Source: Candidatus Enterococcus ferrettii
Lineage (GTDB): Bacteria; Bacillota; Bacilli; Lactobacillales; Enterococcaceae
Direction: 5' to 3'
Assembly: GCF_017377655.1 (NCBI RefSeq)
Contig: NZ_JAFREL010000089.1
Location: 1-31,692, forward strand
Length of the DNA: 31,692 nucleotides
Shown: piece after piece, positions 7,749 through 20,949 of the stretch
Layout: every line of letters begins with the position of its first letter
Position numbering within the stretch: position 1 is the stretch's first letter
The notes under the pieces: generated by a model
Databases searched by the model: none
Told to the model about the DNA's origin: nothing
The model's input: only the letters and a program-made list of their open reading frames with translations
Position numbers and translations under genes: made by a program

Positions 7749-8420
7749 ATGGATGTTTCTCAAGATTATTTAGACGATGTGCTTGTCCGAATGGCGTATC
7801 ATTCCAGTGGAATAGAAGGCAACACAATAAGTTTGCCACAGACAGTCTCTATCATTTTAGAAGGAACGCTTCCCAGCAGCGGTAAAAGCATTCGTGAATT
7901 TTATGAAATTGAAAATCATAAGCAAGCCTTTGATTATTTGATTGGATTGTTAGCTGAAAATCAGTCATTAGATATAGCAGAAATCAAGCAATTTCATTTT
8001 CTGCTAACAGATCGACTGCAGCATGATAAGGGTCAGTTTAAAACGCAGCAAAATGCGATCCGTGGAGCGGAATTCAAAACGGCTGTGCCGGAGGAAACGC
8101 CATTACTAATGAATCAATGGGCTGACAATACAAACTACCGTCTAGATTTATTAACTGATGAACAAGAAATTTTGGAAGTATTAGCAGATACTCATATTCA
8201 GTTTGAACGAATCCATCCTTTTTCTGATGGAAATGGACGAACCGGACGCCTACTATTGATGTACCTGAGTATGAAATATTTAGGAGTGCCGATTGTTATC
8301 AGAAAAGAATGGCGAGGTCAATATATGGAATATCTAGGAGAACAGGATAGTGAGTCCTTGGCAAAATTATTTAGGGAATCAATGGTATTTGAATGTGAAC
8401 GAATGACTGAATTCCCATAG
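7749..8420 (+). CDS. Fic family protein (class II, self-inhibited)
   Basis: 223-aa Fic-domain enzyme, predicted to transfer AMP (or another nucleotide-derived group) to a hydroxyl side chain of a target protein. The catalytic motif HPFSDGNGRTGR occupies residues 156-167, with catalytic H156 and all conserved positions intact. The inhibitory helix SxxxEGN lies at S19-E23-G24-N25 at the N-terminus, on the same chain, which defines class II Fic proteins that keep themselves off until the helix moves. The start is supported by GGGGAGG 7 nt upstream. There is no antitoxin-like small gene beside it, which fits the self-contained class. It is transcribed alone and followed by a terminator. Targets cannot be inferred from the sequence. 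Confidence 0.93.
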   Translation: MDVSQDYLDDVLVRMAYHSSGIEGNTISLPQTVSIILEGTLPSSGKSIREFYEIENHKQAFDYLIGLLAENQSLDIAEIKQFHFLLTDRLQHDKGQFKTQQNAIRGAEFKTAVPEETPLLMNQWADNTNYRLDLLTDEQEILEVLADTHIQFERIHPFSDGNGRTGRLLLMYLSMKYLGVPIVIRKEWRGQYMEYLGEQDSESLAKLFRESMVFECERMTEFP

Positions 8421-8747: not shown

Positions 8748-9266
8748 ATGAACAATAATGACAGATTGTTACGTTTAAGATACGCAATTGATATTAAGGA
8801 TGCTGATCTTATCGAAGCTTTTGAGCTAGGTGGAATCACGATTGCTAAGGACGACATGCATGAGATGTTGACAAAAGTGAAGCCTGCTTCACGTGAGGAA
8901 GATAATGTGTATTTGAAGCCTATAGACAATCAAGAATTAGATGCCTTTTTGAATGGTTTCATCATTCTTAAACGCGGTCCGCAAAAAGATAAACCTGTGG
9001 AAGAAGTACAGCCTCAAAACAAGGAGATCAAATATATCAATAATATTCTTCTGAAAAAGCTGAAGATTGCACTATTCCTGACTAGTGATGACATGTTGGC
9101 CATTCTTGCTGAGGCAAAAGTCTATCCTTCAAAGGGGGAGCTTGGGGCTATTTTACGAAAAGAAGGACATCGCAACTTCAAAACTTGCGGAGATAAGTAT
9201 GCGCGTAATTTCTTAAAAGGATTAGGTTTGGTTTATCGGAGCGAGGAAAATAATCAGAAGCGGTAA
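8748..9266 (+). CDS. DUF1456 family protein (YehS-like)
   Basis: 172-aa soluble protein of the DUF1456 family, whose role is not established. It has the family's two tandem copies of the same helical unit. The first begins NNNDRLLRLRYAIDIKDADL and the second, near residue 87, INNILLKKLKIALFLTSDDM; each is followed by a basic, lysine-rich helix. The start is well defined: AAGGAG lies 7 nt upstream, and the MNNND N-terminus is typical of the family. It is monocistronic as far as can be seen. The family is widespread in bacteria and has been suggested to be regulatory, but no DNA or ligand target can be read from this sequence. Confidence 0.85.
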   Translation: MNNNDRLLRLRYAIDIKDADLIEAFELGGITIAKDDMHEMLTKVKPASREEDNVYLKPIDNQELDAFLNGFIILKRGPQKDKPVEEVQPQNKEIKYINNILLKKLKIALFLTSDDMLAILAEAKVYPSKGELGAILRKEGHRNFKTCGDKYARNFLKGLGLVYRSEENNQKR

Positions 9267-9661
9267 ATGGTTGATGGACGATATAAAAGTATGTCAAAAG
9301 GATGGAGATATATCACAGTTGAACTGCCGAACTAATTATAAGTTGCTAAAAAGCTTTATTAAGGTGTTCTCAAGATAGACATGCTACTGATAATTCATGA
9401 ATGGTTACAGCGGAAATCTATTTCTGAAATCAAGTTTTTGAAAAATTCTTATCTATAGTATTAGGGGCTCTATTGTTGACGTTGGATAATCCATCTTTGA
9501 TCAACATAAAGGTTTTTTTGTGCATGAATAACTGTGAACTAATAATCTAAAAAGAGTTTATCTTTGCAACACTAGTGAGATTATATTAAAAAAAGCAACT
9601 ATTCTCTTTTGCTTTGTTATACTGAAATACATAGATTGAAAAAAGTTGGGAGATGGGTTGA
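9267..9661. other. Intergenic region ahead of the zinc-ribbon/TerB-like operon
   Basis: 395 bp with no convincing gene. GTTGA (9475-9479) and TCAAC (9501-9505) enclose GGAT-A-ATCC and are followed, after a few bases, by seven T, so a structured element or weak terminator is possible there. TATACT at 9618-9623 is the likely -10 of the next operon. Confidence 0.4.
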
Positions 9662-11506
9662 ATGAAGTTTTGTCCTGAATGTGGAAATAAGTTGGTTGAA
9701 GGTGCGAAATTTTGTCCTGAGTGTGGGTATAAAATTTTCAATGAAAATAATTCAAATGAAAAATTAGATAGGAACTTTTCAATTAAAAAGGTATCTTCTG
9801 AGGCTTATATAAGAAGAGTATTAAGCGAATCTAGTATTGAGAACAGCAGTGTTGCACCCGATATTGATGAAAAATTACTAATTACGGCTGCTAAAACAAT
9901 TGCTATGAACATAAATCCATCCTTTATTATTGGCATAATAAATACAGCATTACTTGGTAAAGGAAAAACTGGTATTGTGTTCACTGGATCTGATGCATAT
10001 ATTAGGGGCTCATTTGATACTTCTATAAAAATTCCTTACGAAGGTATTTCCAATGTGAAATATGATTTAGAACGTAAAATGACTGATAAGGGAAAAATGT
10101 TAGAAATTCAATTTCTTACTATTGACTATTTAAACGGTAATTCAATACGAATTGATTCACAAAAGCTGGATGCATCTTTTCCATTTAACTTTTTAGCTCA
10201 GGTGCTAAAAGATTTTGATAAAAACGTGGATAAGATTGAAGTTAGTAATCAAGTCATTCAATTAACAGATCTTGGCCCAGAAATCATTGAGCTCTATTTT
10301 AAGGCGGTTATTATCTTTCTGAAGTCAGATGATTATAAGATTAGTAGTGAGGAATATAAAGAGCTTGTTACACTAATGACTAAAGTTAAAGTAACTAAAC
10401 CAATAGCAAAAAAATTACGTGATTATCGATTTTCAGAAAATATTGACTGTAGCTTTTCTGAAATGGTTTCTTTGTTAAGGAAAGAGCTGAATGAACAAGG
10501 TGTTTCTTATACTGTTATTTACCAATCTCTAGCCATGGATATCATTTCGATGAATAAAAACAGATTAAAAAATTGGAAGGATTTTGATTATATTGTTGGA
10601 GCAATGGAGTCTTTGGAAATAAATAAAAAGCAAGTTGAATTTATTGTACTAAAGATAGAATCTGATGAAAGGCTCATTTCAGAACGCTTGGATGATAAGC
10701 AGGTAGGAGAATTAACTAAAGAACTTGCTGCAGTTGCTAGTGGGGCAGGTGTATCGTTAGGAGCTTTGGCAGTGACAGGTGCGGTAACCGGATGGGGAGC
10801 AGGCATTTCTGGCGGATTGTTTGCTCTTGTAGGATCTGGAGGAACACTTATAGGTCTGGCAGCAATAGCCGGGGCTGGATACGGGGTATATAAAGGCGTT
10901 AAATATTTTTCTGGAACAAGTGAGCTTGAAAAATCAGGAATTCGAATTAATGCATTAACAGTTAAGATTGAACAATTACGAGCAGCCAATGCCTATATAA
11001 TTGATGACATAAACTGGTTAGTTGGAAAAATTGCTTCCTTCGCTAATAAACTTCAAGAATCTGAAGAATTAAATAGTGAAGTTATGAACCAAATGGTTGC
11101 AATGATTAGTCAATCTCAAAATGTTGCAGAGTCAGGATCGCTTGTAGAAAAAGATCAAGAAAATGCAGAGTATGAATACCTAATAGCCAATTTACCAAAG
11201 AAACTGGATGTTGATAAATACGAAGAGTTAATTTCAAAAGATATCAATCATGAACTAAATGATTTGTTAGTTAAAGAGGTATATCTTCCGTTGAGTGAAG
11301 AAGCTATTGCGGGTAGTGAAGAAAATACCGAGACTTTGAATGGATTATTTTTAAACGAAGCTGCTGATTTTGAGACGCTTGGTCGTGTTAGACAAATTCT
11401 AGAAAATATTCGTTATTTCGATACTAAAGCTTCGGCAGCAGCCCAAAGTAAAGTGGTAGCTAAAAAGGCTAAAGCGGGACTAAAATCTTTATTCGGCGGT
11501 GAATAG
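9662..11506 (+). CDS. Zinc-ribbon protein with TerB-like and glycine-rich membrane regions
   Basis: 614-aa protein that I cannot assign to a named family. Residues 4-21 form a double-CxxC zinc ribbon (C4, C7, C18, C21). Residues about 99-180 look like a beta-rich, PH-like domain (GKTGIVFTGSDAYIRG, then IPYEGISNVKYD). Residues about 205-270 resemble the TerB helical domain (LKSDDYKISSEEYKELV, acidic metal-site-like residues). Residues about 355-412 are an alternating Gly/Ala-rich hydrophobic stretch like a glycine zipper, able to insert in a membrane. The rest is helical and charged, ending KSLFGGE. The next gene starts one base after its stop, so the two products probably act together. Its AT-rich codon use is like that of its partner and differs from the genes after 14 kb. 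No enzymatic motif is visible; a sensor or membrane-stress role is only a guess. Confidence 0.8.
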   Translation: MKFCPECGNKLVEGAKFCPECGYKIFNENNSNEKLDRNFSIKKVSSEAYIRRVLSESSIENSSVAPDIDEKLLITAAKTIAMNINPSFIIGIINTALLGKGKTGIVFTGSDAYIRGSFDTSIKIPYEGISNVKYDLERKMTDKGKMLEIQFLTIDYLNGNSIRIDSQKLDASFPFNFLAQVLKDFDKNVDKIEVSNQVIQLTDLGPEIIELYFKAVIIFLKSDDYKISSEEYKELVTLMTKVKVTKPIAKKLRDYRFSENIDCSFSEMVSLLRKELNEQGVSYTVIYQSLAMDIISMNKNRLKNWKDFDYIVGAMESLEINKKQVEFIVLKIESDERLISERLDDKQVGELTKELAAVASGAGVSLGALAVTGAVTGWGAGISGGLFALVGSGGTLIGLAAIAGAGYGVYKGVKYFSGTSELEKSGIRINALTVKIEQLRAANAYIIDDINWLVGKIASFANKLQESEELNSEVMNQMVAMISQSQNVAESGSLVEKDQENAEYEYLIANLPKKLDVDKYEELISKDINHELNDLLVKEVYLPLSEEAIAGSEENTETLNGLFLNEAADFETLGRVRQILENIRYFDTKASAAAQSKVVAKKAKAGLKSLFGGE

Positions 11507-11507
11507 T

Positions 11508-13121
11508 ATGTCAAATCACAAACAAAGGAATGACTTGAATACTATGAATGAAATTGCGGAATCTCTTTTGGTAGAAAACGAATTGAAGAATCAAGGGAGA
11601 GTAAACTTGGATTCTGCGATGTATAATATAGATCAGCTAGACGAACGTATTGATAATACCAATAAGAAAAAAAGAGAATTGCTTGAAATACTCAGAGCAG
11701 GTGGAGACAACCAAAAAGAAGAATTAATCAAGAAGATGAACGAGGTAAAAATTGATCAAACTAAAAAAATCAATTTACAAGAAATTCATCATTTAGAAAC
11801 TCCAAAATTGAATTTAGAGTGGGAAGCTGCTGTTCAGCAAAATAGAGAATTTGCGAAAAAGAACAATATCGATCTTACTTCACCTTACTTTTCGATGTTC
11901 TCTAAGGTAGAGCAGGTACAGATGGCAGCAACACTTGTCAAAAAGTTTGAAGTAATACAACTTGATAAATACGATTATTTATTTGCGACGAGTTGTGGAC
12001 TAATTGCAGGTTTTATTGATGCCATGTTTGTTGGAACCATTCAAACAGGTAAAGCAGCAACAGGCCTTCAAAAAAAAGTAGATAATACCTTTGATAAATT
12101 GGTGAAAAAAGTTGGGAAAAGTCAGAAAATAGCAGACCTTGAAAAGAAGAAAGAGAGCGCTAAAACAGCTGAAGCAAAAGAAAAGCTTGAAAAAATGATA
12201 AAAGATTTAAAGCAAGATATTAAAGGATACGATCAGCATGGAAACCCCATTAAATGGGAAAAAAAAGACAGTATCAAAACTCTAGAGAGTAACCACCGTG
12301 TTTCTTATGATGCGGGCACATACAAATCTGTTAATGGAATGACGCTAGATAATCATCATCTAAGATCCTTAGCACATGATCCTGGATTAATAGGCTTGGT
12401 TTTTGGTGTTTATAATCAATTGAGTGGTTCGAGTTCATTTATAGGTAATGGTGGCGAGTATGTTTCAGTAAGAACTGGAAATTTAAACAATGAATTGAGT
12501 GGGAATTTTATCCAAAAAATAATTCAAGCAGTAAATAATTGGTTCTTTCACTGCTTAAGTGATGTTGCTGGAAGTAGCAGCTCTACTGGACGTGGGAGTG
12601 GTCTACCAGTACCCGGATGGGTGGCATTGCAAAAATTACAGCTTGGAAATTTTAATCTAAATAGTAGACAACAAAATATGAATACTGCAGAGATTAGCGA
12701 TTGGATGTTTAAAAATGGATATGATTTAAGGGCTTTTACTGCGCAAACGATTCCTATAATTATTTATGAAGTACTGCTCAGATGTTATTGGTTTTGTAAG
12801 CAACATTTTTATTATGGCAAAAATTTACAAGAAAGTTTACCTATTGCCAATGATAGAGAATTAGCAAGATTGTTGCTTTTTTCTTCTGCGAGCTTTACTG
12901 CGATAGATGTTGTACACGCAACAATCAAAGCTCAACCAGGTAATCCAGCTTTTTTAGCAACCTTTTTAATGACCATCAATATACCAGGCATGCTTGATTT
13001 TGGGTTTAGATCTGTTCAAAATATTAGAAACGAAGTAATGCATCGACAGCGCATCCAAAAACTGCTAGATAATGATATAAGAGTAGAATTTGATCGTATT
13101 TTACTAGAATCAACAGTATAA
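11508..13121 (+). CDS. Conserved membrane protein of unknown function, partner of the zinc-ribbon/TerB-like protein
   Basis: 537-aa protein. The ATG at 11508 follows the upstream stop by one base, and GGTGA lies 5 nt before it; a GTG at 11499 would overlap the upstream gene and has no ribosome site. The N-terminal 130 residues are charged and helical. A hydrophobic segment near residues 160-181 (CGLIAGFIDAMFVGTI) is followed by a Lys/Glu coiled coil (about 200-240). Two distinctive blocks follow: HHLRSLAHDPGLIGLVFG (283-300) and HCLSDVAGSSSSTGRGSG (348-365). Three more hydrophobic segments end the protein. The His/Asp-rich blocks look conserved and possibly functional. I recall similar blocks in uncharacterised proteins of gut Firmicutes and Bacteroidetes, but no name. 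It is translationally coupled to the zinc-ribbon/TerB-like gene. Confidence 0.8.
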   Translation: MSNHKQRNDLNTMNEIAESLLVENELKNQGRVNLDSAMYNIDQLDERIDNTNKKKRELLEILRAGGDNQKEELIKKMNEVKIDQTKKINLQEIHHLETPKLNLEWEAAVQQNREFAKKNNIDLTSPYFSMFSKVEQVQMAATLVKKFEVIQLDKYDYLFATSCGLIAGFIDAMFVGTIQTGKAATGLQKKVDNTFDKLVKKVGKSQKIADLEKKKESAKTAEAKEKLEKMIKDLKQDIKGYDQHGNPIKWEKKDSIKTLESNHRVSYDAGTYKSVNGMTLDNHHLRSLAHDPGLIGLVFGVYNQLSGSSSFIGNGGEYVSVRTGNLNNELSGNFIQKIIQAVNNWFFHCLSDVAGSSSSTGRGSGLPVPGWVALQKLQLGNFNLNSRQQNMNTAEISDWMFKNGYDLRAFTAQTIPIIIYEVLLRCYWFCKQHFYYGKNLQESLPIANDRELARLLLFSSASFTAIDVVHATIKAQPGNPAFLATFLMTINIPGMLDFGFRSVQNIRNEVMHRQRIQKLLDNDIRVEFDRILLESTV

Positions 13122-13135
13122 AATGTCTTAAATCA

Positions 13136-13165
13136 AGCCCCTCATCAAATCTGGATGATGGGGCT
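13136..13165 (+). terminator. Probable terminator of the two-gene operon
   Basis: AGCCCCTCATC (13136-13146) pairs with GATGATGGGGCT (13154-13165) with one bulged base. The stem is strong, but there is no proper T-tract behind it. Confidence 0.5.
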
Positions 13166-13261
13166 ATGAGCTTTCTTAATTGATGTCTTCTGATTTTCGA
13201 AATGAAATGAAGCATGGAAGCAAAAAAAATTTGACTCTTCCTTTAGTTAAGCTCTCATAAT

Positions 13262-13765
13262 ATGTGTATAACTTACGAAAAGACGGTTGATCATTTAGTA
13301 GAGATTATAAGTAAACTGGACAAGAAAATTCCAGATGTAATGGTTGCACGAATTCCTCCATTTAGAGCAGTAATTTCTGAGACACAGCTTTTTGAGGAGA
13401 TATTTTGGGACGATGACTATGTATTTCAGCTGTGGCAGTATTTTCATTTATATCAGTCAGTGATAGTTGATTGATCGGATTTTCTGTTGTATAAGTGTGA
13501 GATGATCCATCCTGTTAAGAACGATGTAAATGAATCCGATAGTTAGTCATTTAAACTGCTTGACTTTTCTGGCGAATTGTAAGTCAGGACTGTCACTATT
13601 GATGAGGATGATGAGAGCAGTCAAAAGGTTCGTCACAAAATCATTTAATAAACTGAAAATACCAATTTCGAGGATGATAAGAATCGCAGCTTTCTGTTCA
13701 ATATGTCCTATTCAGATAAGGCCAATGAATATCAACAAGACATAGTTGAAGGGGGAAGGCTATAG
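13262..13765 (+). pseudogene. Degenerate GyrI-like effector-binding protein
   Basis: A 70-codon frame opens at 13262 and ends in TGA at 13472. The same frame, read on, continues the same protein: before the stop it reads HLYQSVIVD and after it SDFLLYKCEMIHPVKNDV, then LLDFSGEL, VRTVTIDEDDESSQKV and TENTNFEDDKNRSFLFNMSY. The further in-frame stops are TAG (13544), TAA (13580), TAA TAA (13646-13651) and a final TAG (13763). The pattern (IPPFRAV, DFLLYK, TIDEDDES, ENTNF) recalls the GyrI-like small-molecule-binding domain found alone or at the C-terminus of AraC-type regulators. No frameshift is needed, only base substitutions, so this is a gene decaying by point mutation. The DNA-binding part is absent. 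The family call is from memory of its motifs; the pseudogene call rests on the continuing frame. Confidence 0.7.
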
Positions 13766-13818
13766 ACAAATGCAAAGATTTGCTCTGATAAAACTAAGAA
13801 ACGAACACGTAGTAATTC

Positions 13819-13850
13819 AAGGTACACATCCTCATTCCGTGTACCTTTTT
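13819..13850 (+). terminator. Hairpin at the 3' end of the WYL gene
   Basis: AAGGTACAC (13819-13827) and GTGTACCTT (13839-13847) form a perfect 9-bp stem, with T13846-13850 behind it on the plus strand. It overlaps the stop codon of the minus-strand WYL gene and separates the converging units. Confidence 0.7.
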
Positions 13851-14776
13851 ATCATGTCTTCAACTTCTCTTCGTACTTTGTCCACAAATGACGGTGGTGA
13901 AAGCACCTGAACATTCTTACCTTGACTCAGCAGCCACATGATTACACCAGTATCGTAGGCAGTAGCCTCAATAATAACGCTAGTGTCTGCGAATGTTTTG
14001 ATGACTCTAGAATTTGGCAGCTTATCCAAAGCGGCCTCGACGATTCCCCAAAAACGAAAGGTGAAGGTGACTTCTTTACCGGCATACATAAAGTGGATTT
14101 TTTTCCGCAGCTCACCATCCTCCAGACGATTTTTATGGGGGATTTTTATTTTGTCGGAAGTAACAGTAATTTTACCGAAACGATCCAAGCGATAAATCAA
14201 ATAGTTTTCATATGTTGGGTTGTACAGCAGGACGTAAAAATAGTATTCCGAAAAAATAAGTGAAACAGGCAGGCCTTTGCGCTGGACGAGGTCACCGCGA
14301 TTCTTGCAGTAATCAAAAGCGATGACGGTTTGTTCGGCAATGTACTGGCTGAAATTCCAAATTAATTGAAATAGGTTTTCCTGGTGTTTAAGTGGATAGT
14401 AGTTTAACAACTCATTAGCTAGTGACTTCTTGACTGTCTTGCTGGATTCGACAGACAACTCTTTTAATAGATGATTAATGATTTTTTCTAGTTCTTCTTT
14501 GGTTAGTGCTCGGCTTTCCAGCAGAATTTTGCCGATTGACAGAACCTCTTGTGGTAAGAGCTTGTCAGTATTTTCCAACTTATAATGCTGTTGGTGGGTG
14601 TCGTAAATCAAACTTAGTGATGCATTGCTAGTGCTCAGAATTTCCTTAATTGCAGCTAGATCTCGCTGAATGGTCCGCGGCGAAACATCGTAGCGAGCAC
14701 TAGTCTCTGTGATAGTCAGACTTTGACCTTGGTAAAGAGTGAGAAATAATTCAATTACTCGCTTATTACTGTTCAT
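13832..14776 (-). CDS. HTH/WYL-domain transcriptional regulator
   Basis: 314-aa DNA-binding regulator. The N-terminus is an HTH_11-type winged helix (RVIELFLTLYQGQSLTITET, then YDVSPRTIQRDLAAIKEIL), and the C-terminal half carries a WYL ligand-binding domain (about residues 150-230: TVIAFDYCKNRGD, then LPVSLIFSEYYFYVLLYNP, then YLIYRLDRF) followed by a WCX-like end. WYL domains are known to bind nucleic-acid or nucleotide ligands in several regulators. The start at 14776 is chosen because AAGGAGGG lies 4-5 nt before it; the longer frame to 14821 lacks a ribosome site and would run across the divergent promoter. It is transcribed away from the Mor-like/zinc-ribbon operon across a gap of only 66 bp, so it very likely controls that operon and itself. 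Confidence 0.9.
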   Translation of the reverse strand: MNSNKRVIELFLTLYQGQSLTITETSARYDVSPRTIQRDLAAIKEILSTSNASLSLIYDTHQQHYKLENTDKLLPQEVLSIGKILLESRALTKEELEKIINHLLKELSVESSKTVKKSLANELLNYYPLKHQENLFQLIWNFSQYIAEQTVIAFDYCKNRGDLVQRKGLPVSLIFSEYYFYVLLYNPTYENYLIYRLDRFGKITVTSDKIKIPHKNRLEDGELRKKIHFMYAGKEVTFTFRFWGIVEAALDKLPNSRVIKTFADTSVIIEATAYDTGVIMWLLSQGKNVQVLSPPSFVDKVRREVEDMIKRYTE

Positions 14777-14842
14777 GATGCCCTCCTTGCGACATAATGT
14801 GTCATCATCTAATGATACCATACTGTCGAAGGAGGGAGCTTG
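14777..14842. promoter_or_regulatory. Divergent promoter/operator between the WYL and Mor-like genes
   Basis: 66 bp hold both start regions and two inverted repeats: GACATAATGTGTC (14791-14803) and ATCATCTAATGAT (14804-14816), lying side by side. A related GACGTAATGTC occurs at 15153-15163 before the second Mor-like gene. The likely readers are the WYL or the Mor-like proteins. Ribosome sites AAGGAGG flank both ends. Confidence 0.5.
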
Positions 14843-15112
14843 ATGGTTGAAAAAGAATTACTAAATAGCTTTTATCAAGAATTAGCGGATCTGCTGGATG
14901 AAGAAGCAATGCTGAAATTTTTTGAGCATTATCAGGGCTTGGTGATCAGCGTTCCTAAAAAGCTTTACTGTGGCAAAAGGTTGTCAGAGAGACTGGCACT
15001 CCTTCCTCCGATTGATCTCAAAACGAAACAGCAGCTTGCCCAGAAGTATGGTTATTCCCAGCGACAGATTGAACGATTAATCAAGAAAAATCCAAATGAG
15101 GATTTTACCTAG
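14843..15112 (+). CDS. Mor-like small HTH protein, copy 1
   Basis: 89-aa predicted DNA-binding protein. It has the layout of the Mor/C phage-type activator family: an N-terminal helical dimerisation part, a central strand and loop (FEHYQGLVISVPKKL), and a C-terminal helix-turn-helix with the typical core LAQKYGYSQRQIERLIKK. It starts at ATG 14843, seven nt after AAGGAGG; a TTG immediately before is in frame but less likely. It is the first gene of the plus-strand unit that leads to the zinc-ribbon genes, and diverges from the WYL regulator. A paralogue of exactly the same length follows. A role in transcription of the cluster is inferred; phage origin is possible, but no other phage gene is nearby. 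Confidence 0.75.
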   Translation: MVEKELLNSFYQELADLLDEEAMLKFFEHYQGLVISVPKKLYCGKRLSERLALLPPIDLKTKQQLAQKYGYSQRQIERLIKKNPNEDFT

Positions 15113-15152
15113 CTGCCTTTACAAAGCCAATGAGAAAGTCGCGACAAAAGGA

Positions 15153-15163
15153 GACGTAATGTC
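15153..15163. promoter_or_regulatory. Possible operator before the second Mor-like gene
   Basis: GACGTAATGTC shares the core GACRTAATGT with the repeat at 14791-14803. Two TCGCGA palindromes (15139-15144 and 15174-15179) flank it. It is a candidate binding site only. Confidence 0.3.
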
Positions 15164-15239
15164 GTTGAAAAAATCGCGAGATAAGTTTTTTTGAAAACAT
15201 TATTATTTTAAATAGGGAGTGACGAATGGGGGAAAAGAA

Positions 15240-15509
15240 GTGAATGAGCTTGATACGTCTGGTTGGAATAAAATCTACAAAGACTTGCAGAAAGTAATCG
15301 GTACCGAAGCAACGTTAAACTTATTCAAAGAATATCGAGGGATTCAATTGAATTTACCCGTACGTTTGATTTCTCGGTCGCATATGCTGGATGTACTACG
15401 CATCGACTATGATGGCCGCAACAAACAAAAGCTGGCCCGCGCTTACGGCTACAGTCAGCGCAGTATTGAGCGAATGCTGCGAGAAATCAAAGAGCAGGAG
15501 GAGAGTTAG
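15240..15509 (+). CDS. Mor-like small HTH protein, copy 2
   Basis: 89-aa paralogue of the preceding protein. The conserved points are an aromatic N-terminal helix, the motif EYRGIQLNLPVRL matching HYQGLVISVPKKL in copy 1, and an HTH ending LARAYGYSQRSIERMLRE. The GTG at 15240 follows GGGGGA by 6-7 nt and gives exactly the length of copy 1; the longer frame from the GTG at 15219 has its only purine stretch adjoining the codon. The gap of about 130 bp between the copies carries its own candidate operator, so copy 2 may have a separate promoter. The stop is 4 bp before the zinc-ribbon serine hydrolase gene, so the regulator and that enzyme are in one transcript. Confidence 0.75.
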   Translation: MNELDTSGWNKIYKDLQKVIGTEATLNLFKEYRGIQLNLPVRLISRSHMLDVLRIDYDGRNKQKLARAYGYSQRSIERMLREIKEQEES

Positions 15510-15513
15510 GTTT

Positions 15514-16752
15514 ATGAAATTTTGTGAAGAGTGCGGGACGCCGCTGGTAGAAGGTGTTGCCTTTTGTGAAAATTGTGGAACACCTGTTAAGCATTCAACG
15601 ACAGAACCAATTGAAGAATTGATAGAAACGGCTTCGGAAACTTCTGTCGATAACGAAGCTGTCACAAGCAAAATTATTTCGCAAAAAGTGGAAGGAGAAA
15701 CCTATCGGGACAGACCGCAATCAACCCCTAATCCAAAGAAATCTGGTTGGAAGTGGAGTCTGCTGGCACTGCTGTTGGTTGGGGTGATCGGCGGTTGTCT
15801 CTGGTGGAGAGGCCACGCTTCTGAAGAAAAGACAGCAACGGTTTATTCTTCTATTGAACATTCAACTGAAACAACTCAAGAAAGAAGTACTAGTCAATCA
15901 TTGGTCTCTGATACTGAGACGACAGTCGAATCTGAGGAGTCGGCTTTTAACGTGACAGAAGCTAGAACAATTGCTCAAACTGCTTTAAACGGAGCTGCTG
16001 GAAATTTTGGTGTAGTGCTGGCACCAATTGAAGCTGGCGGGCCGACTTTTTCAATGGAAGAAAAAAATATGCGGCGGGCTGCCAGTGTAATCAAATTATT
16101 CATTATGGCGGCTGTGTATGAGCAAGTGGACCAAAAAAAATTGGCGTTAAACCAGGAATATACCTTGCTTGGAGAAGACATTGTTGGTGGAACGGGCGTG
16201 TTGCAGGAGTATCCGATTGGCAGCACATTGACAATAAATCAGCTGCTTGCTCACATGATGGTTGATAGCGATAATACAGCTGGCAATATTCTGATCGAAC
16301 AGCTTGGGGGACTTTCGGAGTTGAACAATTATCTTCGTGAACAGAATTTTTCCAAGACGGTGATGAATCGTTTGTTTCTGGATACAGAAGCCTTAGAAGC
16401 GGGAATTGATAACTATACCAGTGCAGAGGATGTAGCTCACTTACTACAAAACGTTTATCAGCAAAAACTAGTTTCACCGGTTCATGATTTGGCGATGCTG
16501 GAGCTTTTGAATCAGAATAAAAACCACAGCAAGCTGCCAGCGCAAATTGGACCAGAAGTAGAGGTTTACAACAAAGCAGGAGAATATGCAGATTATGGAG
16601 TAGAAAATGATGCTTGCATTTTCGAAAAAGGCGGCACTGCTTATATATTAGTGGTTCTTTCAGAGGACGGAAAATCCAGTGAACAAATATTGGCAATGAA
16701 TCGTTTAGGGAAAGAATTTTACGAAATGTTTATGGAGAGTGAAAGAAGATGA
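15514..16752 (+). CDS. Zinc ribbon-TM-serine hydrolase (class A beta-lactamase-like)
   Basis: 412-aa membrane protein. Residues 4-21 are a cytoplasmic double-CxxC zinc ribbon. Residues about 76-98 are a single TM helix (WSLLALLLVGVIGGCLWW), followed by a Ser/Thr/Glu-rich stalk. The C-terminal 260 residues are an extracellular beta-lactamase2-type fold, with all three active-site elements: S191-VI-K194, S252-D-N and K354-A-G. Such domains in Firmicutes usually act on peptidoglycan-like peptides or hydrolyse esters, and the KAG instead of KTG together with the anchor argue against antibiotic resistance. The start at MKFCEECG is chosen over an open frame 41 codons longer that overlaps the previous gene. 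It has a 4-bp gap upstream and a 4-bp ATGA overlap with the PrsW gene. The ribbon could report to or recruit a partner inside the cell; this is inference. Confidence 0.85.
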   Translation: MKFCEECGTPLVEGVAFCENCGTPVKHSTTEPIEELIETASETSVDNEAVTSKIISQKVEGETYRDRPQSTPNPKKSGWKWSLLALLLVGVIGGCLWWRGHASEEKTATVYSSIEHSTETTQERSTSQSLVSDTETTVESEESAFNVTEARTIAQTALNGAAGNFGVVLAPIEAGGPTFSMEEKNMRRAASVIKLFIMAAVYEQVDQKKLALNQEYTLLGEDIVGGTGVLQEYPIGSTLTINQLLAHMMVDSDNTAGNILIEQLGGLSELNNYLREQNFSKTVMNRLFLDTEALEAGIDNYTSAEDVAHLLQNVYQQKLVSPVHDLAMLELLNQNKNHSKLPAQIGPEVEVYNKAGEYADYGVENDACIFEKGGTAYILVVLSEDGKSSEQILAMNRLGKEFYEMFMESERR

Positions 16753-17870
16753 ACTATTGTCCAAACTGTGGGAATCCATTAGGAGAACATGCGAAATTTT
16801 GTGGGAAATGTGGATCGTCGCTAAATTTATCGACACAGCCAGTATCAGAAGTAACAAATGAAACAACTAAAAAGCCAGGACTTTTTAGCGAAGCAACCCG
16901 AGCAATCGGAAAATATGCAGGAGAAGAGGACGGCTTGAAGGTCGACTTAAATCAATTGTTTTCAGAAGTAACTAAAAAGCATACCAATGAGGAAGCGGAA
17001 AAGATTTTCATTGCCGGAACTAAGCAGACCACACCAGATATTTCAAAGGTTACGAGCGATTGGTCAAAGCCGTGGTTGTTCTCACGAATTTTTATCGCAG
17101 CACTGCTTGTATTTGGATCACTTCTGATAGCTGTGACAAGCTTTGAAAACAGCAATGCAATCCCAGGCTTAATTATCATCGGTGCCTTTGCTGTTCCCTT
17201 TTCAGTGTTGATCTTTTTCTTTGAAACCAATGTTTATCAAAATATCAGTATTTTTGAAGTCATTAAAATTTTTTTCATTGGTGGAGTTATTTCAATTCTC
17301 AGTACGCTGTTTTTGTATGAGTTTGTGACCTTTAGTGATGAGACAACTTATTTTGGAGTAATGACGATTACGGATGCTTTTTTAGTCAGTGTGGTGGAAG
17401 AGCTGGGAAAGGCCGTGATTGTTGTCTACTTTATTAACAAATACAGTATCAACAAGATTCTAAATGGTTTGTTGATTGGTGCGGCAGTTGGTGCCGGCTT
17501 TGCAGCTTTTGAAACTTCTGGGTACGTTTTTACTGAGCTGCTGGGCTATGGTGATGTGATTGGGATAATTGTTTTGCGGGGCTGGATGAGTATCGGGACA
17601 CATTTGGCTTGGTCGGCGATGATTGGCGGAGCCGTGATTATTGTGAAAAAAACCAGCTCCTTCAATATAAATCAGTTGTTTGATACACGCTTTATCTTTT
17701 TCTTTGCTTCGGCGGTGGTACTCCACGGTATCTGGGACATGGGAATTGTGCTGCTGAACAGCGAGCTGTTGATTTATATTTTGCTGATTGTTGCAGCTTG
17801 GATCGAACTATTTATTTTAATGAGTGCAGGACTAAAAGAAGTCAATCAGTTTCGGCAAACAGAAAATTAG
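16749..17870 (+). CDS. Zinc ribbon-PrsW family intramembrane protease
   Basis: 373-aa multi-pass membrane protein. The N-terminal zinc ribbon has C4, C7, C18 and C21. After a soluble linker of about 90 residues there are eight or so hydrophobic segments that carry the PrsW signature: E217-E218-x-x-K221, G250-F-A-A-F-E255, H285 in THLAW, and H326-G-I-W-D330. PrsW of Bacillus subtilis cleaves the anti-sigma factor RsiW at the membrane, and the family is related to CAAX/APH-1 proteases. Here no sigma or anti-sigma gene is nearby, so the substrate may be one of the neighbouring membrane-anchored zinc-ribbon proteins. The start codon overlaps the stop of the serine hydrolase gene (ATGA), so translation is coupled. 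Confidence 0.9.
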   Translation: MNYCPNCGNPLGEHAKFCGKCGSSLNLSTQPVSEVTNETTKKPGLFSEATRAIGKYAGEEDGLKVDLNQLFSEVTKKHTNEEAEKIFIAGTKQTTPDISKVTSDWSKPWLFSRIFIAALLVFGSLLIAVTSFENSNAIPGLIIIGAFAVPFSVLIFFFETNVYQNISIFEVIKIFFIGGVISILSTLFLYEFVTFSDETTYFGVMTITDAFLVSVVEELGKAVIVVYFINKYSINKILNGLLIGAAVGAGFAAFETSGYVFTELLGYGDVIGIIVLRGWMSIGTHLAWSAMIGGAVIIVKKTSSFNINQLFDTRFIFFFASAVVLHGIWDMGIVLLNSELLIYILLIVAAWIELFILMSAGLKEVNQFRQTEN

Positions 17871-17879
17871 AGGAGATGG

Positions 17880-18566
17880 ATGGAAATGGCAGAATCAAAA
17901 ATGTTTACATTAGAAGAGGGAATGACAGCTGAAAGTGTTGGCCGCGGCTTAGAGATTTTTTTCCGTGAAAAGAAAAAATTTGTAGTCGAGGGAATGGTAA
18001 CACCAGAAGGATATCTGGTTCAAGCAAAAGAAGAGCAGAGCTGGAAAAAATTTGCAGGGATGGATCAGGCGACACAGGTCCAGATATTCCAATCAACATC
18101 AGAAAGTATCACTGTCAATGTTGGTACTGGAAAATGGATTGACAAAGCTGCAGCAGCAGGTGTCGGAGCAATTGTTTTTGCACCATTGTTGGCAACAGCT
18201 GCATTTGGGGTCTTTAAGCAGCAACAATTACCTCAAGAGATTTTCGATGCGATTGAACACTATATTCAAACAGGTGGGAAGGTAGTAACCGTTTCGATGT
18301 CAGGAAATATTGGAGCAGTAGGGACGATTTGCTCCAACTGCCATGCACAAAATCCAGAGGGAACTAAATTCTGCAGCTCTTGTGGGCAGTCGCTGATGGA
18401 TGCTTGCCCTAATTGTCAGGCGTCGATTGATAAAAGTACCAAGTTCTGCCCGGAATGCGGCACGAATGTCCAGGAAACTAAGGAAAAACATTGCGAGAAT
18501 TGTCAAACTGTATTGGCAGAGGATGCCAAATTTTGCCCAGAGTGTGGAACTTCAGCAAGGGAATGA
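17880..18566 (+). CDS. Membrane-associated protein with three C-terminal zinc ribbons
   Basis: 228-aa protein. The N-terminal 90 residues are a small alpha/beta domain (GRGLEIFFREKKKFVVEG, then SWKKFAGMDQATQV). This is followed by a Gly/Ala-rich hydrophobic hairpin at about residues 86-110 (AAAAGVGAIVFAPLLATAAFG). The C-terminus holds three tandem double-CxxC ribbons with the cores CSNC/CSSC, CPNC/CPEC and CENC/CPEC. In contrast to its neighbours, the ribbons are at the C-terminus. The N-terminal part recalls an unnamed family often annotated only as zinc ribbon protein. The ATG at 17880 is used here; the ATG at 17886 is equally placed relative to AGGAG at 17871-17875. It is 9 bp after the PrsW gene, in the same operon. 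The repeated ribbons suggest a scaffold for the ribbon-bearing enzymes; this is a guess. Confidence 0.8.
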   Translation: MEMAESKMFTLEEGMTAESVGRGLEIFFREKKKFVVEGMVTPEGYLVQAKEEQSWKKFAGMDQATQVQIFQSTSESITVNVGTGKWIDKAAAAGVGAIVFAPLLATAAFGVFKQQQLPQEIFDAIEHYIQTGGKVVTVSMSGNIGAVGTICSNCHAQNPEGTKFCSSCGQSLMDACPNCQASIDKSTKFCPECGTNVQETKEKHCENCQTVLAEDAKFCPECGTSARE

Positions 18567-18650
18567 TCTAAGAACCTCTTTTTATGTTCTTGAAGAAGGA
18601 ACGAACAGCCAGTGATACGTGTTAAACTGAACACTAAAGGAGTGAGACGA

Positions 18651-19163
18651 TTGATTATCTGGCTAAACGGTGCTTTTGGTGCAGGAAAGACGACGATTGC
18701 GGAAATCCTTCATTCTAAGCTTGCCAATTCTTATATCTATGACCCGGAAAACATTGGTGATTTTTTACGACATAACCTGCCCCAAGAGATACAAAAGAGT
18801 GACTTTCAAGAGTATGTTGAATGGCGTCAGTGGAATGTACACATGCTAAGGAAGATTTACCGGGAGTATTCGGGGGATATTATTGTTCCAATGACTTTGT
18901 ATAAGCAGCCGGCTTTTGATGAAATTTTTGAAGGATTAAAAAAAGCAGGACTAGAGGTTCATCACTTTCAGTTAGAAGTTAGTAAAAAAGTAATCTTGGA
19001 TCGATTACAGGAACGTAATCAGGTACTAATTAATTGGGGAACAGAAAGAGTAGATGAAATCATCACAGCTTTTCAGCAACTACCTTTGGAAGAGAAAATC
19101 AATAATGAAAAGATGCTGCCAAATGAAGTTGCTCAGTTGATCATTAAGCAGGTATATAACTAA
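18651..19163 (+). CDS. TmrB-like P-loop ATPase
   Basis: 170-aa AAA_33-type P-loop protein. The Walker A motif GAFGAGKTT is at residues 7-15, right behind the first strand, as in TmrB of Bacillus subtilis, a tunicamycin-resistance protein. Other TmrB-like features are YIYDPENIGDFLR, LPQEIQKSDFQEY, IIVPMTLYKQP and LEVHHFQL, in the same order. The TTG at 18651 is the best start: AAAGGAG lies 8 nt before it, and the family begins MIIW at this point. It may share the transcript of the zinc-ribbon genes (84 bp gap, no terminator seen) and is followed by a strong terminator. TmrB itself is thought to bind or sequester the drug at the membrane. Whether this protein has such a role is unknown, and a kinase-type function is possible. 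Confidence 0.85.
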   Translation: MIIWLNGAFGAGKTTIAEILHSKLANSYIYDPENIGDFLRHNLPQEIQKSDFQEYVEWRQWNVHMLRKIYREYSGDIIVPMTLYKQPAFDEIFEGLKKAGLEVHHFQLEVSKKVILDRLQERNQVLINWGTERVDEIITAFQQLPLEEKINNEKMLPNEVAQLIIKQVYN

Positions 19164-19277
19164 AAAACGTTTGCCGATTTACCCACTTTAAAAGATCAGA
19201 CTAATTTTTGCTGAGTATAAGACAAAAGGACAAATTTTCCTTGGTATTCAAGGTACTATGGAATAAAATAATCTATA

Positions 19278-19307
19278 AAGTTCAGCGAATTCTCGTTGAA
19301 CTTTTTT
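19278..19307 (+). terminator. Terminator of the zinc-ribbon/TmrB-like operon
   Basis: AAGTTCAGCGA (19278-19288) pairs with TCGTTGAACTT (19293-19303) over 11 positions with one G-U, closing an ATTC loop, followed by a run of T to 19307. Confidence 0.9.
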
Positions 19308-19534
19308 CGCGCTTATAAAGCCTAAATTAGGCTGCTGGAAGCAAATAATCAATACGTTTAAAATCAATCTGACGCTTACGAATCAGGAACTAAGCAGTTT
19401 TTCTGCTAGATTAGAATAGTTAAAAATAACAAGGGATTTTGAAGACTTGAATTCCCTGCACTTACTTACCTATATGGTTGAGGCAATATAAAAAAACTGG
19501 ATTGAAATATTTTTGTAATATTCTATTCATATGT

Positions 19535-19557
19535 GTGATATATCACTATGGTAGAAT
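19535..19557 (+). promoter_or_regulatory. Extended -10 promoter with a palindrome, for the CHAP gene
   Basis: TGGTAGAAT (19549-19557) matches an extended -10 box (TGnTAnAAT). Immediately upstream lies the perfect 12-bp palindrome GTGATATATCAC (19535-19546), in the place of the spacer, where a bound protein would block or bend the promoter. The leader would be about 55 nt. The protein that binds is not known. Confidence 0.5.
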
Positions 19558-19620
19558 TGCTTCTGACCTTAAAGAATTTATAACTTACATATTAAGTAAA
19601 GTAACCGGAGGAATTATTTA

Positions 19621-20949
19621 GTGAAGAAGACTTTATTATCAGCAGTATTGGTATGTACATTAGCTTTATCAGCGGTGCCAAACATTGCTTTAGCCGATAG
19701 CTATGATCAACAAATTCAAGAAAAAGATCAAAAAATTAGTGAGTTGCAAGGAAAACAATCATCTGTTCAAACACAGATCAATGAAATGACTGCTGAAATT
19801 GAAACAGTAAGCGGACAAGTAAAAGACTTAGAAGCAAAACAAGAAAAATTAAACGAAGATACAATGAAATTACAAGATAAAATTGCGACCTTGAAGGTTC
19901 GTATTGCTAAACGTGAAGCGCTAATTGAAAGCCAAGCGCGTGATGCACAAGTAAATGGTCAAGCAACTAATTATGTGAATGCAGTATTGGATGCTGATTC
20001 TTTATCTGATGTTGTTGGTCGTGTTCAAGCGATGAATACCATGGTTAAAGCGAACAAAACTTTAATGGAACAACAAAAAGAAGATAAACTAGAGGTTGAG
20101 AAGCAAGTCAAAGCCAATGAAGAAAAAGTGGCTGAACTTGTTGAAAACCAAAAAGAATTAGAAACACAAAAAAATGCCATTGCGAACAAACAAGCAGAAT
20201 TGAATGTTGTCAAAGCAAACTATGCGGCTGAGCAAGCAACTGCTGAACAAGATAAGTCTAAATTGAAGGCACAACAAGAAGCTGCTAAAGCTGAACAAGC
20301 ACGTATTTTGAAAGAGCAGCAAGACGCTGAAAAAGCGCGTCAAGCAGAAGAAAAACGCCAAGCGGAAGAAGCAGCGAAAGCTCAAAAAGCATTTGAAGCC
20401 TCTCAAGCGAAGGCAGCTAAAGAACAAGCAGCAACTGTAGAATCTTCTACAGCTGCTACTGAAACTAGCTCTAGTTCAACAGCTCAAGCACAAACAAGTA
20501 CTGAACCAAAAGCAGAAACAACAACAAATTCTTCTGTAGCTGAGACTCCAGTAGTATCAACTCCAACAACTAGCACTGGTGGAAGAGTTGACCACACTGG
20601 ATCAGGCAATGCTTACTCACCAGGTCAATGTACTTGGTATGTTAAATCAGTCGCTCCATGGGCTGGAACTTATTGGGGCAATGGTTGTCAATGGGGAGCT
20701 TCAGCAGCGGCTGACGGTTTCCAAGTAGATGGCTCTCCTACAGCAGGTTCAATCGTGGTCTTTGCTCAAGGACAATCTGTTGGAACATGGAATGCAGATG
20801 GTGCTTACGGTCACGTAGCTTACGTTCAATCGTATGATGCTGGCAGCAATACTATTACAATTACTCAAGGCGGCATGGGCTTCCCAACACCAATGGGACC
20901 AAACACAGCAACCTTAAGTGCTTCAGGATTAACTTACATCCACCCATAA
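19621..20949 (+). CDS. Secreted coiled-coil/CHAP peptidoglycan hydrolase (PcsB/SagA-like)
   Basis: 442-aa secreted cell-wall protein with a GTG start 7 nt after GGAGGAA. It has a signal peptide (KKTLLSAVLVCTLALSAVPN, cleavage likely after ALA-D near residue 26). A long N-terminal coiled coil covers about residues 28-265, ending in Lys/Ala/Glu/Gln repeats, then a Ser/Thr-rich linker to about residue 320. The CHAP domain has C337 in QCTWYV and H398 in YGHVAYV. PcsB of streptococci and the secreted hydrolases of enterococci have this design; the coiled coil usually binds an FtsEX-type activator and CHAP cleaves peptide stems or cross-bridges during division. SagA of E. faecium has NlpC/P60 instead of CHAP, so the gene is not called sagA. 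It is monocistronic with a strong terminator. Confidence 0.92.
   Translation: MKKTLLSAVLVCTLALSAVPNIALADSYDQQIQEKDQKISELQGKQSSVQTQINEMTAEIETVSGQVKDLEAKQEKLNEDTMKLQDKIATLKVRIAKREALIESQARDAQVNGQATNYVNAVLDADSLSDVVGRVQAMNTMVKANKTLMEQQKEDKLEVEKQVKANEEKVAELVENQKELETQKNAIANKQAELNVVKANYAAEQATAEQDKSKLKAQQEAAKAEQARILKEQQDAEKARQAEEKRQAEEAAKAQKAFEASQAKAAKEQAATVESSTAATETSSSSTAQAQTSTEPKAETTTNSSVAETPVVSTPTTSTGGRVDHTGSGNAYSPGQCTWYVKSVAPWAGTYWGNGCQWGASAAADGFQVDGSPTAGSIVVFAQGQSVGTWNADGAYGHVAYVQSYDAGSNTITITQGGMGFPTPMGPNTATLSASGLTYIHP

What the first reader, a model, noticed from the sequence alone, without database searches (positions are those of the whole stretch)
14777..19163. Candidate undescribed membrane system: zinc-ribbon serine hydrolase, zinc-ribbon PrsW protease and triple-ribbon protein under Mor-like/WYL control
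Seen: five plus-strand genes with gaps of 130 bp, 4 bp, -4 bp and 9 bp, in order Mor-like, Mor-like, ribbon-TM-beta-lactamase-fold, ribbon-PrsW, membrane hairpin with three ribbons. A TmrB-like ATPase follows before a strong terminator, and a WYL regulator diverges. Known: PrsW proteases act on membrane-anchored regulators, and the hydrolase active site is intact (SVIK, SDN, KAG). Inference: an extracellular peptidoglycan- or drug-sensing hydrolase, a membrane protease and a ribbon scaffold form one signalling module, with the ribbons bringing the parts together on the cytoplasmic side. No sigma or anti-sigma pair is present, so the substrate of PrsW should be inside the module.
Basis: partly seen in the sequence, partly recalled or inferred. 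Interest (0 to 1): 0.8.

Follow-up and report, generated by a model that had tools for sequence, protein, structure and literature searches.

The report
Zinc-ribbon hydrolase and membrane protease module
A small conserved gene set in enterococci and lactobacilli makes a surface enzyme, a protease buried in the membrane and a third protein that all carry the same zinc-binding tag, which suggests an undescribed membrane signalling unit that sometimes sits beside a known anti-phage system.

Summary
In an Enterococcus pallens-like genome, two Mor-like genes, a ribbon-TM-serine hydrolase, a ribbon-PrsW and a triple-ribbon protein form one tight plus-strand run with a divergent WYL gene. The module is not species-specific: hydrolase and PrsW are adjacent in 13 of 59 PrsW-anchored loci, 12 also with the triple-ribbon gene, in one order in Enterococcus and another in Lactobacillaceae. 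The kinase was found in none of those 59. Ribbons go with linkage: 10 of 16 ribbon-PrsW rows but 0 of 43 ribbonless rows adjoin a hydrolase; a phylogeny-corrected test on hydrolases had too few pairs. In 28 of 47 ribbon-PrsW loci a ribbon protein shares the gene run; in 25 it is single-pass (ribbon, TM, ectodomain), like PrsW's known substrate RsiW. The hydrolase keeps SxxK, SDN and K(T/A)G but lacks the residue aligned with beta-lactamase Glu166. New: Bunzi defence genes lie beside 4 of 18 hydrolase-PrsW loci. Best reading: regulated intramembrane proteolysis with ribbon-matched partners; no step is shown biochemically, and the Bunzi link is suggestive.

The parts
13832..14776 (-). WYL-domain regulator, divergent
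   Evidence: PF13280 32.1 bits, WCX, HTH; homologue in the same place in L041 and L042, and upstream of the module in L043 and L068
14777..14842 (.). divergent intergenic region with a 24-base block invariant in three Enterococcus species
   Evidence: alignment; candidate operator, inference
14843..15112 (+). Mor-like regulator 1
   Evidence: PF08765 20 bits, below cut-off 24.9; kept in L041 and L042
15113..15239 (.). intergenic region with conserved blocks in three species
   Evidence: alignment
15240..15509 (+). Mor-like regulator 2
   Evidence: PF08765 28.6 bits; Ka/Ks 0.03 to E. pallens
15514..16752 (+). zinc ribbon (3-25), one TM (78-96), ectodomain of PF13354 serine hydrolase fold
   Evidence: adjacent to PrsW in 13 of 59 loci
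16749..17870 (+). zinc ribbon (3-25) plus PrsW-family membrane protease
   Evidence: E217, E218, K221, E255, H326, D330 invariant in 17 aligned sequences
17880..18566 (+). alpha/beta domain without a Pfam family, one hydrophobic stretch (94-112), then three zinc ribbons
9662..11506 (+). BnzA of a Bunzi defence system, with an extra N-terminal zinc ribbon (residues 3-24)
   Evidence: PADLOC 2.6e-125; ribbon PF13240 34.2 bits. Neighbour of the module, not a proven part
11499..13121 (+). BnzB of a Bunzi defence system
   Evidence: PADLOC 2.1e-147. Neighbour of the module, not a proven part
18612..19163 (+). P-loop kinase, probably not part of the module
   Evidence: AAA_33 35.7 bits; no homologue in the 59 other loci
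19277..19304 (+). intrinsic terminator
   Evidence: -14.3 kcal/mol, z -4.1, followed by a T run; not listed by the scan

Best explanation
A ribbon-matched regulated-proteolysis unit. The hydrolase is a single-pass protein: zinc ribbon in the cytoplasm, one membrane helix, and outside a penicillin-recognising serine fold that can probably be acylated but lacks the glutamate that class A beta-lactamases use to deacylate, so it would act as a receptor for cell-wall fragments or drugs rather than a drug-destroying enzyme. PrsW, tagged with the same kind of ribbon, recognises or cleaves this partner near the membrane; the triple-ribbon protein, through a membrane-lying alpha/beta domain, collects the ribbon-tagged proteins on the inner face. 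The Mor-like and WYL proteins set the level of the operon. Shown by sequence: the domains, predicted layout, conservation and linkage. Inferred: that the ribbons touch each other, that PrsW cuts the hydrolase, what is sensed, and what the output is.
For: Hydrolase-PrsW adjacency in 13 of 59 PrsW-anchored loci, 12 of 59 also with the triple-ribbon gene. In 395 genomes of the same order, 10 of 16 PrsW rows whose match begins with the ribbon adjoin the hydrolase against 0 of 43 others (Fisher 1.3e-7). Ribbon hydrolases have a ribbon neighbour in 13 of 18 cases, ribbonless in 1 of 16 (p 1e-4); ribbon-PrsW 24 of 47 against 0 of 12 (p 8e-4); background genes 1 of 187 and 1 of 502 (strict motif; the loose motif gives p 4e-4 and 6e-4). 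Partner families change while the ribbon stays: hydrolase, a Staphylococcus ectodomain family, BACON proteins in Bacteroidota, DUF805. In 28 of 47 ribbon-PrsW loci a ribbon gene lies in the same run, and in 25 of those it is single-pass with an N-terminal ribbon. PrsW motif residues are invariant in 17 sequences; the hydrolase keeps SxxK, SDN and K[TA]G, but position 288, aligned with Glu166 of class A enzymes, is F (11), M (4) or L (1) in the 16 aligned sequences. PrsW cleaves RsiW at site 1 in response to envelope stress (PMC6686233 and PMC3498285, passages). Zn-ribbon-PrsW fusions were predicted in 2012 to be signalling peptidases (PMC3482391, section 9 read).
Against: Nothing shows that PrsW cuts the hydrolase. 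23 of 47 ribbon-PrsW genes have no ribbon gene as immediate neighbour, 19 of 47 none in the run. Five ribbon hydrolases have no ribbon neighbour (L176, L185, L192, L196, L197). Some of the 12 ribbonless PrsW genes are fragments that may have lost the ribbon (L095, L098). Counts include relatives: on the hydrolase tree the ribbon changes at least 7 times, but only 3 independent pairs lie on supported branches (sign test p 0.25). In L073 the larger ribbon partners are polytopic, in L088 the partner has two TMs and in L078 none. An invariant Asp290 lies two residues after the Glu166 position, so a shifted general base is not excluded. Zinc ribbons may be generic cytoplasmic caps. No sigma/anti-sigma pair, so the output is unknown.
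Confidence: 0.42

Rival explanations
1. The module is an accessory or sensor of the Bunzi anti-phage system: the ribbon-tagged surface hydrolase and PrsW detect envelope damage during infection and act on ribbon-tagged, membrane-bound BnzA.
For: BnzAB beside the module in the window and L041; a short BnzA-like gene plus BnzB right upstream in L068 and L168, about 350 and 43 bp away: 4 of 18 distinct hydrolase-PrsW loci, at different positions. BnzB is in 26 of 395 genomes; expected within 10 kb of the 10 hydrolase-PrsW loci of that sample 0.0055, seen 2, P 1.5e-5, or 1 seen with P 0.005 when the window's genome is left out (rough model with 2.5 Mb genomes). My BnzB model found BnzB in all 25 loci fetched for it and in none of the 46 PrsW loci without hydrolase. 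BnzA has its own N-terminal ribbon in 4 of 7 full-length cases: window, L213, L214, L215. A Mor gene sits beside ribbon-BnzA/BnzB in L215.
Against: 14 of 18 module loci have no BnzB in the flank seen (several flanks are cut by contig ends). BnzA of L041 has no ribbon although it adjoins the module. Defence genes cluster anyway: other candidate defence genes flank the module in L043 and L046. Of the module proteins scanned (Mor2 was not), hydrolase, PrsW, triple ribbon and Mor1 have no PADLOC match; WYL matches generic WYL models and the kinase weakly.
Confidence: 0.18
2. Maturation or quality control: PrsW processes or degrades the ribbon-anchored hydrolase, which is itself a peptidoglycan DD-peptidase-like effector; ribbons are recognition tags but no signal is transmitted.
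For: Same linkage data; PrsW is a protease family and the hydrolase active-site motifs are kept.
Against: Dedicated regulators (two Mor, WYL) and the triple-ribbon protein suggest more than processing; the hydrolase evolves faster than PrsW (Ka 0.27 against 0.07 to L041), which fits a sensor as well as an effector.
Confidence: 0.2
3. The ribbons are generic cytoplasmic caps common in Gram-positive membrane proteins; the gene cluster is an accessory-region assembly without a joint function.
For: The locus lies in a variable region after the yehS-like gene; 19 of 47 ribbon-PrsW genes have no ribbon gene in their run; the phylogeny-corrected test lacks power.
Against: Two conserved gene orders across families, overlapping genes, purifying selection, and background ribbon frequency of 1 in 187 and 1 in 502 genes.
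Confidence: 0.2

Closest known systems
PrsW / RsiW regulated intramembrane proteolysis (Bacillus subtilis)
   Same: PrsW-fold protease; partner with zinc-binding cytoplasmic N-terminus (for RsiW recalled), one TM and an ectodomain; envelope-stress theme
   Different: No sigma or anti-sigma factor found; partner has an enzyme-like ectodomain; protease and partner carry matching ribbons; NCBIfam PrsW equivalog score 38 against cut-off 225
Zn-ribbon-PrsW fusions noted by Zhang et al. 2012 (PMC3482391)
   Same: Same fusion, already predicted to be signalling peptidases (section 9)
   Different: In the passages and the section I read, no partner gene, serine hydrolase, triple-ribbon protein or Bunzi link is described; its additional file was not seen
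BlaR1/MecR1 (recalled)
   Same: Penicillin-recognising extracellular domain tied to a membrane protease and a DNA-binding regulator
   Different: There sensor and M56 metalloprotease are one protein; here two proteins, a PrsW-type protease and a PF13354 domain
Class A beta-lactamase / PF13354 serine hydrolases (PDB 2j7v, 4ewf, 4hes)
   Same: Fold family, SxxK, SDN, KTG
   Different: No Glu at the Glu166 position; membrane anchor and zinc ribbon
Bunzi (BnzA, BnzB)
   Same: Adjacent in 4 of 18 loci; BnzA ribbon-tagged in the window
   Different: Hydrolase, PrsW and triple-ribbon protein do not match PADLOC models

Membership tests
PrsW family (PF13367) | profile match over curated cut-off | tested here: met
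   80.2 bits, cut-off 23.5
PrsW family (PF13367) | conserved intramembrane motif residues | tested here: met
   E217, E218, K221, E255, H326, D330 invariant in 17 sequences; which residues are catalytic is recalled
PrsW equivalog (NF033739) | score over NCBI's cut-off of 225 | tested here: not met
   38 bits
RsiW-type regulated proteolysis | sigma / anti-sigma pair in the module | tested here: not met
   none among the 7 proteins scanned with Pfam and NCBIfam over cut-off; Mor1 and WYL have sub-threshold sigma70-ECF matches in their HTH regions (16.5 and 13.5 bits, cut-off 42.9)
RsiW-type regulated proteolysis | single-pass partner with cytoplasmic zinc domain and ectodomain | tested here: met
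   by prediction only: ribbon 3-25, one TM 78-96, ectodomain; sidedness inferred
RsiW-type regulated proteolysis | PrsW cleaves the partner | not testable with these tools
   needs an experiment
Class A beta-lactamase | Ser70-x-x-Lys, SDN, KTG | tested here: met
   SVIK, SDN, KAG in the window; KTG in nearly all aligned relatives
Class A beta-lactamase | Glu166 on the omega loop | tested here: not met
   aligned residue F288; F, M or L in 16 of 16; the numbering of Glu166 in the aligned enzyme is recalled
Class A beta-lactamase | NCBIfam bla_class_A cut-off 200 | tested here: not met
   114.9 bits
Mor transcription activator (PF08765) | over curated cut-off | tested here: inconclusive
   Mor2 28.6 (met), Mor1 20 (not met), cut-off 24.9
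Bunzi defence system | BnzA and BnzB present and adjacent | tested here: met
   window 9662-13121, 2.6e-125 and 2.1e-147
Bunzi defence system | hydrolase, PrsW or triple-ribbon protein as a Bunzi component | tested here: not met
   no PADLOC match at E up to 0.01 for the three
KA1-like / helix-grip fold (triple-ribbon N-domain) | fold match well above unrelated rows | tested here: inconclusive

The most novel reading that the evidence does not exclude
A zinc-ribbon code: PrsW proteases find their single-pass substrates through matching cytoplasmic ribbons, so swapping the ectodomain (serine hydrolase, BACON, staphylococcal domain) retunes what one protease senses; in enterococci and lactobacilli the serine-hydrolase version, held by a triple-ribbon hub, watches the cell wall and arms or anchors ribbon-tagged Bunzi during phage attack.
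Probability: 0.12. Interest if true: 0.88.

Novelty: new variant of a known kind. Interest (0 to 1): 0.62.

Why it matters
RsiW is the one PrsW substrate named in the passages I read. The linkage rule (ribbon-PrsW beside a ribbon-TM-ectodomain gene) names candidate substrates in Lactobacillaceae, Enterococcus, Staphylococcus and Bacteroidota at once, and each can be tested by deleting one gene. If the ribbons are docking tags, a common domain of unknown role in Gram-positive membrane proteins would gain a function. The repeated adjacency to Bunzi offers a hint of what surface event might connect to that defence system.

Tried and rejected
Kinase as a module member: rejected, no homologue in the 59 other loci. 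Beta-lactamase as a resistance enzyme: not supported, no Glu at the Glu166 position. Plasmid-borne module: the plasmid search with the triple-ribbon protein gave 10 records, none covering 80% of it. A simple empty site in sister species: not found in the three module-less relatives where I read the flank of both or one of the neighbours (G001, G002, G008; also G014 for one side); they carry different accessory genes there. Operator motif: the 11-base pattern is not enriched in the window (7 matches, 9.4 expected), so only the conserved intergenic blocks are reported. The first ribbon motif was too narrow and missed four ribbon hydrolases (L185, L192, L196, L197); one search uses a wider one and the result got weaker (13 of 18 ribbon hydrolases with a ribbon neighbour). 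Fold of the triple-ribbon N-domain: two models, no firm relative. Literature: no paper in the held library joined PrsW, zinc ribbon and serine hydrolase, and one joined PrsW and zinc ribbon, a domain-classification paper that I saw only as a listing. The listings (some capped at 8 to 12 rows) showed no title on the module; from them I opened PMC3482391, PMC9019972, PMC10952713, PMC6686233 and PMC3498285, and only section 9 of the first was read in full, the rest as passages. Subscription journals and preprints are not covered. No structure of a complex was attempted (single chains only).


Full report
What is there. The window lies in a 5.4 Mb Enterococcus-type genome; the nearest named relative of the hydrolase is from Enterococcus pallens, 83% identical. 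The five genes of the finding are real and tight: Mor1 14843-15112, Mor2 15240-15509, hydrolase 15514-16752, PrsW 16749-17870, triple ribbon 17880-18566, with WYL on the other strand. Pfam places Mor2, hydrolase, PrsW, the ribbons and WYL over their cut-offs; Mor1 is below. The five genes are under purifying selection against E. pallens (Ka/Ks 0.03 to 0.19). A hairpin terminator follows the kinase.

Is it a unit? Anchoring on PrsW, the genome collection gave 59 loci. The hydrolase lies beside PrsW in 13 of 59 and the triple-ribbon gene is with them in 12 of 59 (in L045 the hydrolase gene is split). Enterococcus sp. 669A (L041) and E. pallens (L042) share the window's order, with two Mor genes and the divergent WYL. 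Ten Lactobacillaceae loci (among them Lactiplantibacillus, Levilactobacillus, Secundilactobacillus, Lapidilactobacillus) have trib-hyd-prsW, eight of them with a Mor gene in front; L. modestisalitolerans (L046) has mor-hyd-prsW. The other 46 loci, among them Staphylococcus, Oceanobacillus and a second Levilactobacillus group, have PrsW without the hydrolase next to it. Within the genus 3 of 20 genomes hold the triple-ribbon gene. In 395 genomes of the same order the full-length triple-ribbon protein was found in 6, and in 5 of these it lies by hydrolase and PrsW (the first look of that search scores only a few candidates a genome, so some may be missed); the sixth, in a Carnobacterium-like genome, stands after two serine recombinases. 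In four further genomes the pair hydrolase-PrsW occurs with no triple-ribbon or Mor gene found (L168-L171), so hydrolase and PrsW are the core.

The ribbons. In the 395-genome sample, PrsW rows whose match begins with the ribbon (profile position 1-3) adjoin a hydrolase in 10 of 16 cases, the others in 0 of 43 (Fisher 1.3e-7); many of the 43 come from one family, so this is not 59 independent events. With a motif test on 34 hydrolase loci, ribbon hydrolases have a co-directional ribbon neighbour within 100 bp in 13 of 18 cases and ribbonless ones in 1 of 16 (the one, L174, has a degenerate ribbon); for the 59 PrsW loci the figures are 24 of 47 and 0 of 12, some of the 12 being fragments; genes further away bear the motif in 1 of 187 and 1 of 502. 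The partners differ: hydrolase; DUF805 (L170); ribbon-TM proteins in Staphylococcus; BACON proteins in Bacteroidota (L082 and L086; the L086 ribbon is below Pfam's cut-off). In 28 of 47 ribbon-PrsW loci a ribbon protein lies in the same run, and in 25 of the 28 it has an N-terminal ribbon and exactly one predicted membrane helix. Against this: five ribbon hydrolases have no ribbon neighbour (L176, L185, L192, L196, L197), and on a tree of 41 hydrolases only 3 independent pairs sit on supported branches (sign test p 0.25), although the ribbon changes at least 7 times and the neighbour trait at least 5. The association is strong in counts and unproven in phylogenetic terms.

Regulation. The region between WYL and Mor1 holds a 24-base block identical in three Enterococcus species, and the region between Mor1 and Mor2 further conserved blocks. 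Mor-like genes also head another ribbon operon (L233) and stand by a ribbon-tagged Bunzi pair (L215).

Bunzi. The genes at 9662-13121 are BnzA and BnzB, and this BnzA has its own N-terminal ribbon. In L041 BnzAB follow the triple-ribbon gene by about 275 bp. In L068 and L168 a short BnzA-like gene and BnzB stand about 350 and 43 bp upstream of the module; their short proteins are 48% identical. That is 4 of 18 distinct hydrolase-PrsW loci (the window, 13 and L168-L171). BnzB occurs in 26 of 395 genomes, and the expected number within 10 kb of the 10 loci of that sample is 0.0055 against 2 seen (P 1.5e-5), or 1 seen with P 0.005 without the window's genome (rough model). My own BnzB model, which found BnzB in all 25 loci fetched for it, found none in the other loci of the two scanned sets. 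Against a specific link: 14 of 18 loci lack it in the flank seen, several flanks are cut, BnzA of L041 has no ribbon, other candidate defence genes flank L043 and L046, and defence genes cluster in general.

Mechanism. Known: PrsW cuts the anti-sigma factor RsiW at site 1 under envelope stress (PMC6686233 and PMC3498285, passages). Zhang et al. 2012 recorded Zn-ribbon-PrsW fusions and predicted them to be signalling peptidases (section 9 read). The new points are the recurring partner with RsiW-like layout, the triple-ribbon protein, the two conserved operon orders and the Bunzi neighbourhood. I hold the most likely mechanism to be PrsW acting on the ribbon-hydrolase, with ribbons as docking tags; every step after gene linkage is inference.

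Verdict. Real, conserved, not described in the papers I could search, and directly testable. New variant of a known kind (regulated intramembrane proteolysis); interest 0.62.

Noticed in passing
window 9662-13121: Bunzi anti-phage genes BnzA (with an extra N-terminal zinc ribbon) and BnzB directly upstream of the finding.
   Followed up: yes
window 7749-8420: Fic-like protein matching a PADLOC candidate defence family (PDC-S04, 6.9e-111) and SoFic (8.1e-28).
   Followed up: no
window 8748-19621 and L207-L211: The stretch after the yehS-like gene looks variable in Enterococcus: the relatives read carry different genes there.
   Followed up: partly
L215:6914-11460: DUF805 protein, Mor gene and ribbon-tagged BnzA/BnzB side by side, with a WYL-like match near.
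   Followed up: partly
L233:13149-14904: A second Mor-headed ribbon operon in the genome that also holds mor-hyd-prsW, about 4-5 kb from a BnzB gene.
   Followed up: partly
L173:5494-10279: A lone triple-ribbon homologue (Carnobacterium-like) just after two serine-recombinase-like genes (named by eye), so perhaps on a mobile element.
   Followed up: no
L169:6779-8983: Four more ribbon proteins next to a hydrolase-PrsW pair, three upstream on the same strand and one on the other.
   Followed up: partly
L043 and Lactiplantibacillus plantarum WCFS1: A LysR-regulon paper (PMC9019972, passage) lists two zinc-ribbon genes with neighbouring tags, LP_RS12410 and LP_RS12415, lowered together; they might be this module, which I could not check.
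   Followed up: no
L045:8509-9989: The hydrolase gene of Secundilactobacillus similis appears split in two frames; counted as it stands.
   Followed up: no
G000:C88:46829-47368: A second PrsW-family gene in the window's genome; the ribbon-PrsW protein query did not match it, so it may lack the ribbon.
   Followed up: no
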